NCBI RefSeq assembly: GCF_007990755.1
Contig: NZ_BJXA01000069.1
Span: forward strand, 1-50,857
Source: Nocardia ninae NBRC 108245
GTDB taxonomy: Bacteria > Actinomycetota > Actinomycetes > Mycobacteriales > Mycobacteriaceae
Reading direction: 5' to 3'
Length of the DNA stretch: 50,857 nucleotides
The notes beneath the pieces were generated by a model. The model ran no database searches and had not been told where the DNA came from. It was given only the letters and a program-made list of their open reading frames with translations. Positions 9,402-36,030 of this stretch are shown in pieces. The position numbers and the translations under genes are program-made. The first letter of the stretch is position 1. Each line of letters begins with the position of its first letter.

Positions 9402-10307
9402 TCAGCGCTGGATCCAGTCCCGCATGCGGCCGAACAGGGTGCGGCCGGAGTCGCGTTCGCGTTCGGTGAAGAGGAATTTCAGCTCCTCCTCCAGGGACTT
9501 GCGGACTACGTCGCGCAATTCCTCTGCAGCCGTGCCGATGTCGTCGGCGTCGCGCCAGGGAGCCGGGTCTATCGGGGTGCCCGCGGAGAAGTAGAAGCGT
9601 TCGGGGCGTGGCAGGACGGTCGGGCCGAGGCCGCGCAGCAGCGGGGGTGTCAGTTCGGGGTTGATGCCGAGGGCTTCGACGGTCCAGCGCAGCGGGCGCA
9701 GCAGCGGGTGGTCGCCGTCGATCACGATGTCGTAGGCGTCGTCGACGCCGATCATCGCGATCGGCACGATCGGCGCGCCCGCTTCGATCGCCATCCGCGC
9801 GAAGCCGGTGCGGCCCTCCCATTTGAGGAGGTACTTCTCGTTCTTGCGGCGCACCGCTTCCCGTCCGCCACCGGGGAAGACGATGACGGCCTCGCCGCGC
9901 TTCAGCAGCACGAGGCAGTTGCCGCGGGTGCCGCGGACCGCGCCGTAGCGGTGCAGGAAGTGACGCACGCCCGGGACCGCGATCAGCACGTGTTCGGCGA
10001 GCCCGCGGATCAGGCGACCGCGGCGGCGCAGCACCTCGGGCAACAGCAGCGGTGCGTCGATGCCACCCATCAGGTTGTGATTGCCGACCGGCAGCACGGG
10101 CCCCTCGGTAGGGATGTTGTCGAGTCCGTAGAACCGCGGACTGGTCCACGCCCGCAACGGCGAGAGCAACGCCTCGATTACCCGCAGATCGCTGTCGCTC
10201 AGCGAAACCGCCAGTGGAGCCCCGTCACTGAGCGCAGGCTTCTCCAGCACCGACGCCCCGGACGCGCCCTCCACGGAACCAACCGAACCCGAACGGTCGT
10301 GCGACAT
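9402..10307 (-). CDS. PlsC-like lysophospholipid/glycerol acyltransferase
   Basis: A 301-residue acyltransferase of the PlsC/LPLAT superfamily. The catalytic block is present in variant form as VGNHNLMGGIDAPL (usually NHxxxxD), followed by the acceptor-binding block VIVFPGGGREAVRRKN and the PIVPIAMIGVDDAYD block. It probably acylates a glycerol- or alcohol-type acceptor at the inner face of the membrane, and is related to the DAGAT-like enzymes common in mycolic-acid bacteria. The start at 10307 is supported by a strong AGGAGG ribosome binding site; an in-frame ATG at 10382 is rejected. Confidence 0.88.
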   Translation of the reverse strand: MSHDRSGSVGSVEGASGASVLEKPALSDGAPLAVSLSDSDLRVIEALLSPLRAWTSPRFYGLDNIPTEGPVLPVGNHNLMGGIDAPLLLPEVLRRRGRLIRGLAEHVLIAVPGVRHFLHRYGAVRGTRGNCLVLLKRGEAVIVFPGGGREAVRRKNEKYLLKWEGRTGFARMAIEAGAPIVPIAMIGVDDAYDIVIDGDHPLLRPLRWTVEALGINPELTPPLLRGLGPTVLPRPERFYFSAGTPIDPAPWRDADDIGTAAEELRDVVRKSLEEELKFLFTERERDSGRTLFGRMRDWIQR

Positions 10308-10689
10308 ACATCCCTCCTGATGTCGCCCCGAACGATACCGTAACGAATTCCACTGTGCCGCATCATATGTGAGAGCCAACACAGTCCACCCGGTCTGCTA
10401 TGAGCTTCGGCGCACCCTCCCCCGGCGACAAAACCACCACCAGCCTGCCACGCAGCACCCATCCCCCAACCCAAGAGTTTGCTGTCAATTCGTGCGCAAC
10501 CACACAACGGTGCCAGACGCGCATGGCTCGAATGCGCCAACCACCCTGTGTGCGCATGCCAGTCGTCCCGCCGACACTCACAGCGTCCCAGCCTCGACCA
10601 GCGCCCACCGTTTCTTCTGCCGCAAAAGAAACCGCCAGCAGCCCCCGCTCATCTCCGCTCCGACCGCCTTCGACGGCACGCGAGTGCTC
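10308..10689. other. Intergenic stretch upstream of the repeat array
   Basis: No gene is supported here. Reading frames on both strands are open mainly because of base composition. A minus-strand frame (10363-10902) contains a hydrophobic segment MAFPFAVGAIMILSVTLG, but that segment falls in a diverged unit of the neighbouring repeat array and third codon positions are not GC-biased as in the real genes. This stretch should hold the promoter of the acyltransferase gene. Confidence 0.4.
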
Positions 10690-11161
10690 CTGCAAGCCAG
10701 CCGTCAGCAGACCAAGGGTCACAGACAGGATCATGATGGCGCCAACCGCGAATGGGAACGCCATAAGGTCCCGCACAGTCATGGCCACCCCGTCGAACGG
10801 GACACGACGGCGACGAAACGCGAGTGAGCGTGCCATCACGTCCCGCGCGCCGATTAGCAACCCGCTCAACGGGACATGACGGCAGCAAAAGCGAGGAAGC
10901 ACGCCAGAGTGTCCCGCTCGACGATCGGCTGCTCACCAAACGGCCCATGCCGGCGGCGGAACGCGAGTAGGCGCGCCATGACGTCCCGCTCACTGGTGGT
11001 CGGCCCGTCGAGCGGGACCCGGCGGCGCAAACGCGAGGAAGCACGCCAGAGTGTCCCGCTCGATGATCGGCAGCCCTCCGAACGGGACATGCCGGACGGC
11101 AGCCCTACTGAGGCGCTCAGCAGCGTCCCGTCTCGCTGCCCGAGTCTTTAGACGTGGAACA

Positions 11162-11200
11162 GACAGCCAGCACATGGCTACTCGCCCCTTGCTGGCTGTC
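11162..11200. repeat. Hairpin element B1 inside array A
   Basis: A perfect 10-bp inverted repeat, GACAGCCAGC at 11162-11171 and GCTGGCTGTC at 11191-11200, with the loop containing ACATGGCTACTCGCCCCTT. The loop and right arm recur in element B2. Confidence 0.8.
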
Positions 11201-11576
11201 GAGCCGCGGTCTCACCAACGGGACGTGACGCGGCAACCTCGAGTAGGCACGCCATGGCGTCCCGCTCGACGATCGGCAGCTCACCGAACGGCACATGACG
11301 GCGGCGAAACGCGAGTAGGCGCGCACTGATGTCCCGCTCGGTGGTCAGCAGCCCGCCGGATGGGACATGACGGCGGCGAAACACGGGTGGTCGCGGCCTG
11401 GTGTACCGGGCGGTGACGATCGTTGCAGCTGTCGCCTCAGTGCGGAGCGGACGTGGCCCTGCGGGCGCTACTCGTCTCGTCGGCTGGCACACCAGCTGTC
11501 CCACCGAGCGGGACATGGCAGCGGCGAAAGCGAGTGGGCACGCCAGGGTGGCCTGTCCGACGACGATCCCGATGCG

Positions 11577-11640
11577 GGCTGATCGCCGTGCGCGGAGCAA
11601 TGATCTGCGCCGCACATGGCTGCTCGCCTCTTGCTGGCTG
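11577..11640. repeat. Element B2 inside array A
   Basis: About 60 bp running from GGGCTGATCGCC through CACATGGCTGCTCGCC to CTTGCTGGCTG. The first part is repeated at 11838-11898 with few changes (GGAGCAA, TCTGCGCC, CACATGGCTGCTG), and the end matches the loop and right arm of B1. It interrupts the 72-bp array. Confidence 0.75.
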
Positions 11641-11837
11641 TCGCGCCGACGCGCGGTCCCGCGAACGGACATGATGGCACCAGAACACGAGTGGGCGCGC
11701 CGTGAGGTCCCCGTCGGGGATGGTCGGCCGCCGAACGGGACGTAAAGGCGGCGAACGCGAGTAAGCGCACCACCCATGTCCCGCTCGGTGATCAGCAGCC
11801 CGCCGAATGGGACGTGATGGCGGCCGTGAAAGCTACC

Positions 11838-11898
11838 GGGCTGATCGCCATGTGTGGAGCAACGGTCTGCGCCACACATGGCTGCTGCCTGCTGGCGG
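11838..11898. repeat. Element B3 at the end of array A
   Basis: A third copy of the B element, sharing GGGCTGATCGCC, GGAGCAAC, TCTGCGCCA and CACATGGCTGCTG with B2. It lies directly before the hflX stop codon. Confidence 0.7.
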
Positions 11899-11920
11899 CC
11901 GCACCGTCCAGACCTGGGGA

Positions 11921-13525
<1,605 letters not shown>

Positions 13526-13604
13526 ACAAGATCCATGATCCCACGATGCACCGACATGGCGCATTCGGATATTCGGCACAGCGTGTTGGACCGAGCTGAC
13601 CGGG

Positions 13605-25046: not shown

Positions 25047-25064
25047 TCGCGTGCCGGCGGCAGC

Positions 25065-25165
25065 GGGTGTTGCGCCCGAAGTTCGCCGACGCACGCCGGC
25101 GGGCGGCATCGGTGTTGCGTCCGAGAGCACCGACGCGCAGGCCGGGCCTCTTCGGGGTTGCGTGC
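25065..25165. repeat. Short degenerate direct repeats
   Basis: The word GGTGTTGCG or close variants recurs at 25066, 25111 and 25154, about 45 bp apart. The first two are followed by C/T-CCGA and then a CGACGC block. Non-coding, between gluD and the peptidase gene. Confidence 0.45.
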
Positions 25166-33220: not shown

Positions 33221-33318
33221 AGGAGGAATCTAACGCAGGACATCATCCGGCTAGGGGGATGCGTTCGATTGCCGCACTCTTGGCGTCGATATCGTTCGAA
33301 TCCGCCACGGAGGCCCCT

Positions 33319-34725
33319 GTGAAGAAATGGCTCCCCCTGTCCGCCGCGTGTCTCGGCACGCTGATGCTGCTCATCGATGTCACCATCGTGAATGTCGCGT
33401 TGCCCGACATCGCGGCCGATCTGCACGCCGGGCTGTCCAGCCTGCAATGGGTGGTGGACGGCTACGCACTGGCTTTGGCCGCACTGCTGCTCGTCCTCGG
33501 TTCGCTCGCCGACCGGATCGGCGCGAAACGCGCCTACCTCGCCGGGCTCGTCCTGTTCGCCTTCGCCTCGCTCGGCTGCGGAATCGCCGACACCTCCTCG
33601 AATCTCATTGCCGCACGGGTACTTCAGGGCATCGGCGGCGCGGCCATGTTCGCCACCACCCTGTCGCTGCTGCACTCGACCTACTTCGGCCGGGAACGCG
33701 GCATCGCCTTCGGCGTCTGGGGTGCGGTGACCGGTGCGGCGGCGGGCATCGGGGTGGTGCTCGGCGGTGTGCTCACCGAGGCCCTGTCCTGGCGGTGGAT
33801 CTTCCTCGTCAACCTGCCGATCGCGGTGCTGGCAATCGCGTTGACCGCCATGGTGTTTCCGGCGTCGGTGCATCGCACGGACCGCAGGGTGGACGTTCTG
33901 GGCATGCTGTCCTTCGCCACCGCGGCGACCGCACTCACCTACGGGGTCATTCGCGGCGGTGAGCACGGCTGGTCGGACGGTCGCGCGGTGACCACCCTGC
34001 TACTCGGCGTGGTCGCGATCGCAGTGTTCGCCGTAGTCGAATCACGCAGTGCCGCACCGATGTTCCCGCTGTCGCTGCTGCGCAACCGCAACTTCGGCGC
34101 GACGCTACTCGGAGCCAGCGGGCAAACGTTCGCGGCGTTCGCCAGCACTCCCCTGGTCTCGCTCTGGCTCCAGCAGCAGTTGCGGATGTCGCCGCTGCAC
34201 GCGGGCCTGGCATTGCTCCCGATGGCCGCGACCGCATTCCTGGTCGCCGCAGTGTTCGGGCGGTTCATGCACGACGTCGCCCCGAAGTGGACCATCGGCG
34301 CGGGTCTCGTCGTCGTCGGAATCGGCACCGGACTGCTCACCGTGATCGATGCCGGATCATCCTGGGCAGCACTGGTTCCCGGATTCGTAGTGCTCGGCGC
34401 GGGCATCGGCATCAACGCGCCCGCACTCGTATCGGTGGGCATGGCCGCGGTACCCCCGCAGCAGGCAGGCACCGCGGCCGGCGCCGTGAACACCGCCCGG
34501 CAACTCGGTCTCGCACTCGGAGTCGCAGTACTGGGCACAGTCTTCCGCACAGCCTCCGGCCCGGACCAACCGATAACCTTGCCGCACTTCGTATCCGGTC
34601 TGGACACAGCCTTCACCGTTGCCGCAACCGTGGGCATCGTCTTCGGGCTACTCGCCTTCACCCTGTTCCACCGCCAACGCCCCGCTACCGAATCCGCCAG
34701 GGCTGAACACAAAGTCGCCGCCTAG
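33319..34725 (+). CDS. MFS drug:H+ antiporter, DHA2-like
   Basis: A 468-residue exporter of the EmrB/QacA (14-helix) group. Motif A-like GSLADRIGAKRAYLAG follows helix 2. Helix 1 holds the DHA2-typical LDVTIVNVALPDI-like LIDVTIVNVALPDIAADL, and WVVDGYALALAAL follows. Motif C-like GAVTGAAAGIGVVLGG is present. GTG 33319 has a GGAGG ribosome binding site; an in-frame ATG at 33259 is less likely. Its substrate is unknown; the divergent double Lrp regulator probably controls it. Confidence 0.9.
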   Translation: MKKWLPLSAACLGTLMLLIDVTIVNVALPDIAADLHAGLSSLQWVVDGYALALAALLLVLGSLADRIGAKRAYLAGLVLFAFASLGCGIADTSSNLIAARVLQGIGGAAMFATTLSLLHSTYFGRERGIAFGVWGAVTGAAAGIGVVLGGVLTEALSWRWIFLVNLPIAVLAIALTAMVFPASVHRTDRRVDVLGMLSFATAATALTYGVIRGGEHGWSDGRAVTTLLLGVVAIAVFAVVESRSAAPMFPLSLLRNRNFGATLLGASGQTFAAFASTPLVSLWLQQQLRMSPLHAGLALLPMAATAFLVAAVFGRFMHDVAPKWTIGAGLVVVGIGTGLLTVIDAGSSWAALVPGFVVLGAGIGINAPALVSVGMAAVPPQQAGTAAGAVNTARQLGLALGVAVLGTVFRTASGPDQPITLPHFVSGLDTAFTVAATVGIVFGLLAFTLFHRQRPATESARAEHKVAA

Positions 34726-34750: not shown

Positions 34751-34910
34751 CGGACCTGCACCTCAGTGGCGGCCAGAGTGGGGGTGCGGATCCCGAGAAC
34801 GCCTACCGGAACCGGCGGACCACAACCCCGCCATGGCCAACGGGCACGACGGCAGACCCACTCGCGACCGATACCGCCCCATGCCCCGTCGACCATGCCC
34901 AACGCCACCC
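34751..34910. repeat. Direct repeat C, copy 1
   Basis: About 160 bp starting CGGACCTGCACCTCAGTGG, passing through GGCCAGAGTGGGGGTGCG and ending GCCCAACGCCACCC. It is repeated at 34998-35155 with scattered changes, and each copy includes one 72-bp unit. Confidence 0.8.
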
Positions 34911-34997
34911 AACGGGACATGACGACGCCCCCACTCACACTCCCCCGCCCTAATGTCCCCTCGGCCATCCCCAACACCAGCCAGCGGGACATGACGA

Positions 34998-35155
34998 CGG
35001 ACCTGCACATCAGTGGGCAGCCAGAGTGGGGGTGCGAATCCCGTTTACGCCCACCGGAACGGCCGACCACACCCCCATGTCCAACGGGGCACGACGGCAC
35101 CCCCTCGCGGCCGATACCGCCCACATGTCCCATCGACCACGCCCCAGCGCCACCC
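34998..35155. repeat. Direct repeat C, copy 2
   Basis: The second copy of the 160-bp element (CGGACCTGCACATCAGTGGG, GCCAGAGTGGGGGTGCG, CGGCCGATACCGCCC, ending CAGCGCCACCC). It lies 247 bp after copy 1 and indicates a segmental duplication within array D. Confidence 0.8.
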
Positions 35156-35447
35156 ACTCCTGACCAGCGGGACATGACGGCGGCCCCACTCGCACTTCCC
35201 CGCCCCCTATGTCCCCTCAGTCACACCCAGCACCACCCAGTGGGACATAACGGCAGCCCCACTCGCACTTCCCCGCCCTCATGTCCCCTCAGCCATGCCC
35301 AGCACCATCCAGCGGGACATGAGAGGGCGGCCCCACTCGCACTTCGGCGCCCCTCATGTCCCGTCGATCATGATCCCGACACCCACACCGCAACACGACC
35401 CCCAACAGACTCACTCGCACCGACATCCGCACCCGATTCCCACAGCC

Positions 35448-35514
35448 GCACCCACTCTCGGGAGCCGCACCCACTACGGGCCCCGGAGCCAGTGCAGATC
35501 CCGAGAGTGGGTGC
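35448..35514. repeat. Perfect 15-bp inverted repeat
   Basis: GCACCCACTCTCGGG (35448-35462) and CCCGAGAGTGGGTGC (35500-35514) with a 37-bp interior. It lies about 65 bases beyond the stop of the DUF1348 gene and could terminate that transcript, or mark the edge of the repeat region. The arm words recur in element C (AGAGTGGGGGTGCG). Confidence 0.75.
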
Positions 35515-35580: not shown

Positions 35581-36030
35581 TTACTGCTGCGGCAGGATCG
35601 ACTCGTCCCCCGGATCGCGTGGGCCGAGAATGCGGCGGTCCGATTCGGCGATGCGGACGTCGTTGATGCTGGCTTCGCGGCGGGACATCAAACCGTCGGG
35701 GGCGAACTCCCACTGCTCGTTGCCGTAGCTGCGCCACCATTGGCCGGTTTCGTCGTGCCATTCGTATTGGAAGCGCACCGCGATGCGGTTGCCTTCGAAG
35801 GCCCAGAGGTCTTTGCGCAGTGCGTAGCCGTTTTCCGAGGCCCATTTGCGGGTGAGGAATTCGACGATCGCGGGGTGACCGGTGAAGAACTCGTCGCGGT
35901 TTCGCCACACCGAGTCCTCGGTGTAGGCGGCGGCGACTCGTTCGGGATCGCGGGTGTTCCAGGCATTTTCAGCGGCGAGCACTTTGACCTTGGCGGATTC
36001 CAGATCGAACGGCGGCACTGGGGGTCGCAT
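35581..36030 (-). CDS. DUF1348 / NTF2-like protein
   Basis: A 149-residue SnoaL/NTF2-fold protein of the DUF1348 group: [61 protein letters not shown]. The fold binds small hydrophobic ligands, but its substrate is not known. The ATG at 36030 has a GAGGAG ribosome binding site. It is last of three same-strand genes (VOC, flavin-binding protein, this) facing the CGNR regulator. Confidence 0.9.

What the first reader, a model, noticed from the sequence alone, without database searches (positions are those of the whole stretch)
10690..11850. Array of about 72-bp palindromic repeats in a 1.6-kb gene-free gap
At least ten direct units with 70-72-bp pitch, each holding GTCCCG ... CGGGACATGACGGC arms that can pair within and between units. 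Neither half is constant enough for CRISPR, and the pitch breaks reading frame, so this looks like an uncharacterised non-coding repeat. It could be a structured RNA, a protein-binding array or a mobile palindromic element.
Basis: seen in the sequence. Interest (0 to 1): 0.75.

Follow-up and report, generated by a model that had tools for sequence, protein, structure and literature searches.

The report
Nocardia palindrome array with nuclease parent
The array is a local pile-up of a short palindromic DNA element scattered through Nocardia and related genomes, and the same kind of palindrome brackets many copies of a nuclease gene that may move it; this resembles a known repeat system of other bacteria but with an unrelated enzyme.

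Summary
The array is real. A 46-bp core with inverted arms plus a 26-bp linker makes a 72-bp unit: 8 model-scored units at 10787-11794, and a second array at 34830-35374. It is not local slippage: at least 150 copies lie in this genome (capped search), with relatives in other Nocardia and other genera of the family. Between genomes the stem tips change in compensatory fashion; outer ends and apical loop stay alike. It is intergenic, avoids divergent gaps, and is neither CRISPR nor coding. No RAYT domain (Y1_Tnp) was found.

A parent candidate emerged. A gene with an AbiEi-like N-terminus and a Vsr/DUF559 nuclease C-terminus has similar sequences, mostly palindromes, on both sides in 42 of 52 copies examined (two slightly different window sizes), against 10 of 300 control genes. 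DnaA-box-like nonamers precede 29 of 35 copies, against 3 of 300. Dispersed elements best match the flanks of their own genome's nuclease copy in 16 of 28 tests (1.4 expected).

Best reading: non-autonomous palindromes of a REPtron-like system with a nuclease unrelated to RAYTs, amplified in tandem here. Association is shown; mobilisation is inferred. No clean empty site was found, and some Nocardia genomes hold elements without a detected gene.

The parts
10787..11794 (+). Array 1: 8 model-scored units of the ~72-bp palindromic element (10787-10856, 10859-10927, 11002-11069, 11208-11275, 11278-11347, 11350-11419, 11655-11723, 11725-11794), plus degenerate units
   Evidence: R2 cmsearch; repeats and TRF; R1
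34830..35374 (-). Array 2: 6 units of the same element in opposite orientation (34830, 34902, 35074, 35157, 35230, 35302)
   Evidence: R2 cmsearch; TRF period 73; array at the orthologous place in G079
9402..10307 (-). acyltransferase gene (PF01553) whose 5' end faces array 1
11921..13579 (-). hflX GTPase gene, 3' end faces array 1
33259..34725 (+). MFS transporter gene whose 3' end faces array 2
35581..36030 (-). DUF1348 gene convergent on array 2

Best explanation
The array is a tandem amplification of a dispersed, non-autonomous palindromic element of Mycobacteriaceae. The intact element is a hairpin of about 62-72 nt: outer ends like CGCCGA/TCGGCG, a genome-specific stem tip (GGGACATG here), an inner GGCGGC, and an asymmetric apical motif around CGAG(T/A). 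Its likely source is a REPtron-like cassette: palindrome, DnaA-box-like nonamers, one gene for a protein with an AbiEi-like N-terminus and a Vsr/DUF559 PD-(D/E)XK nuclease C-terminus, palindrome. Inferred steps: the AbiEi-like part recognises the cognate inverted arms, the nuclease part nicks or cuts at them when they are extruded or single-stranded, and copying of the palindrome spreads it. Insertions persist behind genes because a palindrome there can act as a two-way terminator; tandem 72-bp arrays then grow and shrink by unequal recombination. Shown here: family, architecture, covariation, location, gene association. Inferred: recognition, mobilisation, termination, array mechanism.
For: At least 150 copies in this genome: all 150 candidates that were scored matched. 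Geometry 46 + 26 = 72 over 21 regions. 59 of 61 clusters lie between called genes; convergent gaps enriched (25 of 59, p=1e-4), divergent depleted (4 of 59, p=7e-5). Cross-species stems: 79 double-sided changes against 28 shuffled, covariation score 0.416 against 0.177. Parent cassette: R2 elements on both sides of the nuclease gene in G000 C37, G079 and G156; up- and downstream flanks similar in 28 of 35 copies against 10 of 300 control genes, Fisher 5e-26, and in 17 of 20 fetched, 3 of them already among the 35. Hairpin arms of one copy match each other in 18 of 24 against 9.4% across copies, 0 of 5000 permutations. Hairpins are more alike where proteins are (Mantel r=0.12, p=0.0095; shared descent of the whole cassette would do the same). 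Dispersed elements rank their own genome's nuclease flank first in 16 of 28, 1.4 expected, including all 5 tested from this genome. DnaA-box-like nonamers upstream 29 of 35 against 3 of 300. Domains at E<=1: MTES_1575 10/10, DUF559 10/10; a PADLOC AbiEi profile at E<=0.01 10/10. No Y1_Tnp in this genome. Terminator slot: behind pepN two species carry an element-type hairpin where most of the 28 other relatives read show an unrelated GC-rich hairpin.
Against: Nocardia genomes G236, G213 and G028 have 25 (the cap), 16 and 6 R2 matches but no gene at E<=1e-20 (where only 12 candidates per genome were scored); for G236 all 22 candidates of another query failed too. The element/gene association over 201 genomes is moderate (19 of 34 against 47 of 167, p=0.0025). 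Both nuclease copies of G127, the genome with the clearest dispersed match, show a palindrome downstream only. No clean insertion with target duplication was found; the one presence/absence site is better read as a deletion. Nuclease copies within a genome are 65-71% identical where they align, so no recent jump was seen. 12 of 28 dispersed elements did not rank their own genome's flank first; 6 of these best matched another genome of the same genus. Inside this genome inner stem pairs do not covary and many are broken. A mere co-inherited regulatory site would also give matched flanks.
Confidence: 0.55

Rival explanations
1. The palindromes are operators, not mobile ends: the AbiEi-like nuclease is autoregulated by inverted repeats beside its gene, and dispersed elements are further binding sites through which it marks or organises the chromosome.
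For: AbiEi-like N-terminus; that AbiEi antitoxins bind inverted repeats is recalled, not from a call. Conserved core blocks recur at ~10.5 bp, block-shuffle p about 0.02. GGGAC and CGCC are kept (2-12% substitution between neighbours) while linkers differ by ~42%. Elements persist at orthologous sites in two species (18 of 19 compared gaps, G079 regions having been chosen for elements).
Against: Does not readily explain a palindrome downstream of the stop codon as well as upstream, stem-pair covariation, or the multiplication of copies.
Confidence: 0.25
2. Plain bidirectional intrinsic terminators that became alike by gene conversion, with no mobilising enzyme.
For: Location behind genes; element-type hairpin in the terminator slot behind pepN.
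Against: Copies of one genome share the stem sequence, and distant genera share loop and outer ends; matched flanks bracket one specific gene family.
Confidence: 0.1
3. Classical REP/REPIN elements mobilised by a RAYT tyrosine transposase.
For: Palindromic pairs, >100 copies, genome-specific sequence, extragenic.
Against: No Y1_Tnp match in this genome, while the control rang in 5 of 14 genomes; no constant GTAG or CGTC tag at the base (by reading); a different gene is flanked.
Confidence: 0.04
4. Local replication slippage only.
For: Copy number per array differs between two close species, e.g. 1 vs 5, 3 vs 11, 14 vs 4.
Against: Dispersed copies genome-wide and in other genera.
Confidence: 0.02

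Closest known systems
REP/REPIN elements with RAYT (REPtrons); Nunvar 2010 PMC2817692, Bertels and Rainey 2011 PMC3116915 (abstract and section list seen)
   Same: Palindromes dispersed between genes, genome-specific sequence, arrays, a single parental gene flanked by two such palindromes, apparent coevolution of gene and palindrome
   Different: Parent protein is AbiEi-like/Vsr-like, not a Y1 HUH transposase; unit is a ~62-72-nt hairpin with conserved loop; DnaA-box-like sites upstream of the gene; Mycobacteriaceae
CGTC-tagged REPs; Di Nocera 2013 PMC3733652 (abstract and passages seen)
   Same: Palindromic repeats without a known dedicated transposase, located between unidirectional and convergent ORFs
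   Different: 20-40 bp with an unpaired CGTC tag; in the main text of that paper the words Nocardia, Rhodococcus, Mycobacterium, Gordonia and Actinobacteria do not occur
BIMEs of enterobacteria (definition seen in the abstract of PMC2817692; the rest recalled)
   Same: Regularly spaced palindromic units in alternating orientation in gene-free gaps
   Different: Different sequences, no RAYT domain found here
Vsr-like DUF559 endonucleases (PMC12907096, passages seen)
   Same: C-terminal domain family of the candidate parent protein
   Different: That paper treats a predicted mismatch-repair enzyme; the passages seen do not mention palindromic flanks

Membership tests
REP/REPIN-RAYT | Cognate Y1 tyrosine transposase (RAYT) in the genome | tested here: not met
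   PF01797 search of own genome: 0 matches at E<=0.001, both candidates scored
REP/REPIN-RAYT | Unpaired GTAG/CGTC tag at the foot of the hairpin | tested here: not met
   Aligned units show no constant tag at the base; foot is mostly CGCCGA/TCGGCG-like or TGATCA-like (by reading)
REP/REPIN-RAYT | Many extragenic palindromic copies, genome-specific sequence | tested here: met
REP/REPIN-RAYT | Parental gene flanked by two palindromes | tested here: met
   By an unrelated gene, DUF559/MTES_1575, in most but not all copies
MITE | Terminal inverted repeats with target-site duplication and a matching transposase | tested here: inconclusive
   One presence/absence site with 4-bp CAGT at both edges, probably a deletion
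CRISPR array | Near-identical repeats, unique spacers, cas genes | tested here: not met
   Neighbouring units differ by 29% on average; the flanking genes are hflX and an acyltransferase
Known Rfam RNA family | Match above gathering score | tested here: not met
   0 matches in the window
DUF559/Vsr-like nuclease (parent gene) | Pfam DUF559 / REase_MTES_1575 domain | tested here: met
   10 of 10 members at E<=1; L257 protein DUF559 28.2 bits against cut-off 20.6, MTES_1575 36.3 against 38.2
DUF559/Vsr-like nuclease (parent gene) | Nuclease activity on its palindromes | not testable with these tools
   needs biochemistry

The most novel reading that the evidence does not exclude
A second, RAYT-independent class of REPtron: an AbiEi-Vsr nuclease bracketed by its own cognate palindromes and preceded by DnaA boxes spreads palindromic hairpins through Mycobacteriaceae genomes in step with replication, each gene copy serving its own palindrome dialect, and supplies the host with ready-made two-way terminators.
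Probability: 0.4. Interest if true: 0.88.

Novelty: new variant of a known kind. Interest (0 to 1): 0.75.

Why it matters
REP-type palindromes without a dedicated transposase are an open problem (stated for CGTC REPs in PMC3733652). A nuclease gene family bracketed by matched palindromes in many genera of one family offers a direct, testable candidate for how such repeats arise without RAYTs, and it gives this nuclease family, found here in 166 of 201 genomes, a possible substrate. It could also explain many unannotated intergenic repeats in Nocardia and relatives.

Tried and rejected
RAYT: searched in the own genome and not found. Coding repeats: 72 = 24 codons suggested it; no 3-periodicity. 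Pure RNA structure: within one genome no covariation; between genomes yes. Function of the 72-bp spacing: the hairpins of N. vulneris and N. brasiliensis in the same gap repeat at 207-209 bp, so 72 is not universal; non-72 spacings are only weakly in helical phase (uncorrected p 0.0075 at 10.1 bp, 15 periods tried). Plasmids and phages: array 1 gave no blastn match at E<=1e-3. Empty site: ambiguous; the other G079 candidates gave no clean pair. Class-wide search: outside the family only 4 weak single matches. A genus search for one gene held a single genome and gave no comparison. DNA uptake sequence: considered only, not tested; the exact 13-mer has just 22 copies. Papers: the listings show no report of this family nor of DUF559 with palindromes (up to 12-20 titles shown per search; only open-licence papers are held).

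Full report
Observation. The gap 10308-11920 between an acyltransferase gene and hflX holds direct units with spacings near 72 and inverted arms GGGAC / GTCCC. R2 scores 8 units there and 6 more in a second array at 34830-35374 in the opposite orientation. Rfam has no match in the window.

Family in this genome. The exact 13-mer GGGACATGACGGC occurs 22 times in the 9.70-Mb genome and its backwards control 0 times. Model R1 matched all 150 candidates that the search scored, of 11322 first-look candidates, so 150 is a floor. In 400 kb taken without regard to elements, 33 sites score >=16 bits and 0 in the reversed sequence, in 9 clusters, all in gaps. Across 21 regions the geometry is strict: facing arms 46 bp (30 cases), back-to-back gap 26 bp (33), same orientation 72 bp (54). 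Of 61 clusters (194 units at >=14 bits) in the C1 stretch, the window and 48 regions chosen for having elements, 30 lie in tandem gaps, 25 convergent, 4 divergent and 2 were called inside genes; gaps of 100 bp or more in the same regions were 179/76/91. Convergent enrichment p=1e-4, divergent depletion p=7e-5 (the test treats each cluster as one gap, though two share one gap and one gap is under 100 bp). Gene calls are from my own codon-model script, not a standard caller.

Constraint. Between neighbouring units 72 bp apart (52 pairs) GGGAC differs in 4-8% of comparisons, CGCC in 2-12%, GTCCC in 4-6% at three positions and 19% at two, two Cs of the central ACTCG in 6-8%, and the 26-bp linker in about 42%; there is no 3-base periodicity. 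Conservation within the 46-bp core peaks at a 10.5-bp period (block shuffle p about 0.02). Within this genome five pairs are supported and none covaries. Between genomes the picture changes: on 27 sequences (26 distinct) from many species the 22-pair helix is 85.8% paired, with 79 double-sided changes against 28 in shuffles, and slid versions fall to 36-52%. Many of these sequences were found with R1, which contains only five pairs, so selection for pairing is limited but not nil.

Evolution of the site. The hflX-acyltransferase gap could be measured in 26 of 39 fetched loci: it is about 160-375 bp in many Nocardia and 750-1600 bp in the N. brasiliensis, vulneris, colli, suismassiliense and altamirensis loci, with exceptions (L105 and L111 about 580 bp; L110, L113, L134 and L100 long gaps with no element or one half-site). 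R2 finds elements there in 6 of 39 loci. N. vulneris and brasiliensis carry a different dialect (GGAACTGG tips) at 207-209-bp pitch in the same gap. Arrays differ much between the two closest species: 1 vs 5, 3 vs 11, 14 vs 4 and 1 vs 7 units at 84-96% flank identity (G079 regions were chosen for having elements).

Distribution. R1 matches 50 of 98 Nocardia genomes; single matches near E 0.003-0.009 may be chance. R2 matches 34 of 201 genomes of the family in 11 of 31 genera, with 25 candidates scored per genome, and 8 of 197 of the class, of which 4 outside the family are weak singles. In other genera the same plan recurs with new stem tips, for example CGGGCTCTG in G127 and GTGTGCACCTGCC in genus g22.

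Parent candidate. Proteins beside elements showed no family that I recognised as a transposase among the larger clusters, but a DUF559/MTES_1575 gene next to elements in three genera. A search of seven element genomes returned copies in six; R2 found elements on both sides of copies in G000 C37, G079 and G156, and at the 3' side in G127 (two copies) and G000 C81, whose 5' side is near a contig end and shows a degraded arm. Over 35 copies of the close subfamily from 30 genomes (one locus at a contig end, one duplicate, the C81 copy and one partial copy left out beforehand), up- and downstream flanks align at SW>=22 in 28, against 10 of 300 genes of this genome, 3 of 50 neighbour genes and 3 of 14 distant paralogues (for the paralogues the match was partial, so the upstream window is unreliable). 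The G000 C37 and G079 copies count as misses there although R2 sees both elements; the two G127 copies are true misses upstream. Hairpins with stem score >=10 on both sides: 21 of 35, against 8 of 148 genes of this genome and 18 of 100 neighbour genes, the latter drawn partly from element-bearing loci. Twenty fetched copies, 3 already among the 35, gave 17 with SW>=22, so 42 of 52 distinct copies (slightly larger windows and no control of its own). Within one genome copies are 65-71% identical where DNA aligns, and most have their own matched pair. DnaA-box-like nonamers (label recalled) lie upstream in 29 of 35 against 3 of 300 and 13 of 66 neighbour genes.

Link between parent and dispersed copies. 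Tested were 28 dispersed elements of genomes for which a nuclease flank was held; two that themselves adjoin a nuclease copy and duplicates were left out. 16 best match the flanks of a nuclease copy of their own genome (1.4 expected); 6 more best match another genome of the same genus; 6 match elsewhere; for several of these genomes only one of several gene copies was held. All five tested elements of this genome, three of them from the window, best match the C81 copy. Element presence and a high-scoring gene (threshold about E 1e-80, set by me) are associated over 201 genomes (19 of 34 vs 47 of 167, p=0.0025). G236, G213 and G028 have elements without a detected gene, as would be expected if parents can be lost, or if they are not needed.

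Protein. All 10 aligned members match MTES_1575 and DUF559 at E<=1, and one PADLOC AbiEi profile at E<=0.01; Pfam AbiEi_1 matches 3 of 10. MTES_1575 is described as a Vsr-fold REase (PMC3710099, two passages). Residues of a PD-(D/E)XK-type site (E..D..E) are invariant in the alignment (assignment inferred).

Function at the site. Behind pepN, this genome and G079 have a short element-type hairpin with the same arms and different loops. Of the other 28 relatives read, most show an unrelated GC-rich hairpin in that place; in several the next gene is a different one (by reading). This suggests, but does not prove, a terminator role for single copies. In the arrays many inner pairs are broken, so array units may be relics or protein sites.

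Verdict. Slippage alone, CRISPR, coding repeat and RAYT-REP are excluded or unlikely. The best reading is a dispersed palindromic element of a REPtron-like, nuclease-based system; association is strong, mobilisation is inferred.

Noticed in passing
window 34760-34810, 35012-35060, 35430-35510: A second repeated motif around CCAGAGTGGGGGTGCG / TCCCGAGAGTGGGTGC is interleaved with array 2; similar words occur in L020.
   Followed up: no
window 25056-25145: Two-copy 46-bp tandem repeat between called genes.
   Followed up: no
L101 4091-4579: N. vulneris has the sister dialect at 209-bp pitch in the orthologous gap, so array pitch differs between clades.
   Followed up: partly
L270 1024-1094; L261 1004-1074: The element overlaps the 3' end of a called gene and supplies its last codons and stop (one ending AEWAIAAATVE, another DEWHLAAANVE).
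   Followed up: partly
L321, L322, L325, L327 downstream of distant DUF559 paralogues: Long hairpins of other sequence also follow distant paralogues (stem scores 17-33).
   Followed up: no
A5 profile positions 103-169: The middle region of the nuclease matches TAL effector repeats in the PDB by sequence (best E 5.8e-27 for the whole, repeat-rich chain).
   Followed up: no
G079 C1: The 150 scored elements cluster at about 2.2-3.5, 4.1-5.0 and 6.1-7.4 Mb of the 9.12-Mb contig (by reading).
   Followed up: no
G000 C1 near 106900 vs L160 8370-8505: A 135-bp segment with an element is present in G079 and absent in G000, with CAGT at both edges; probably a deletion in G000.
   Followed up: partly
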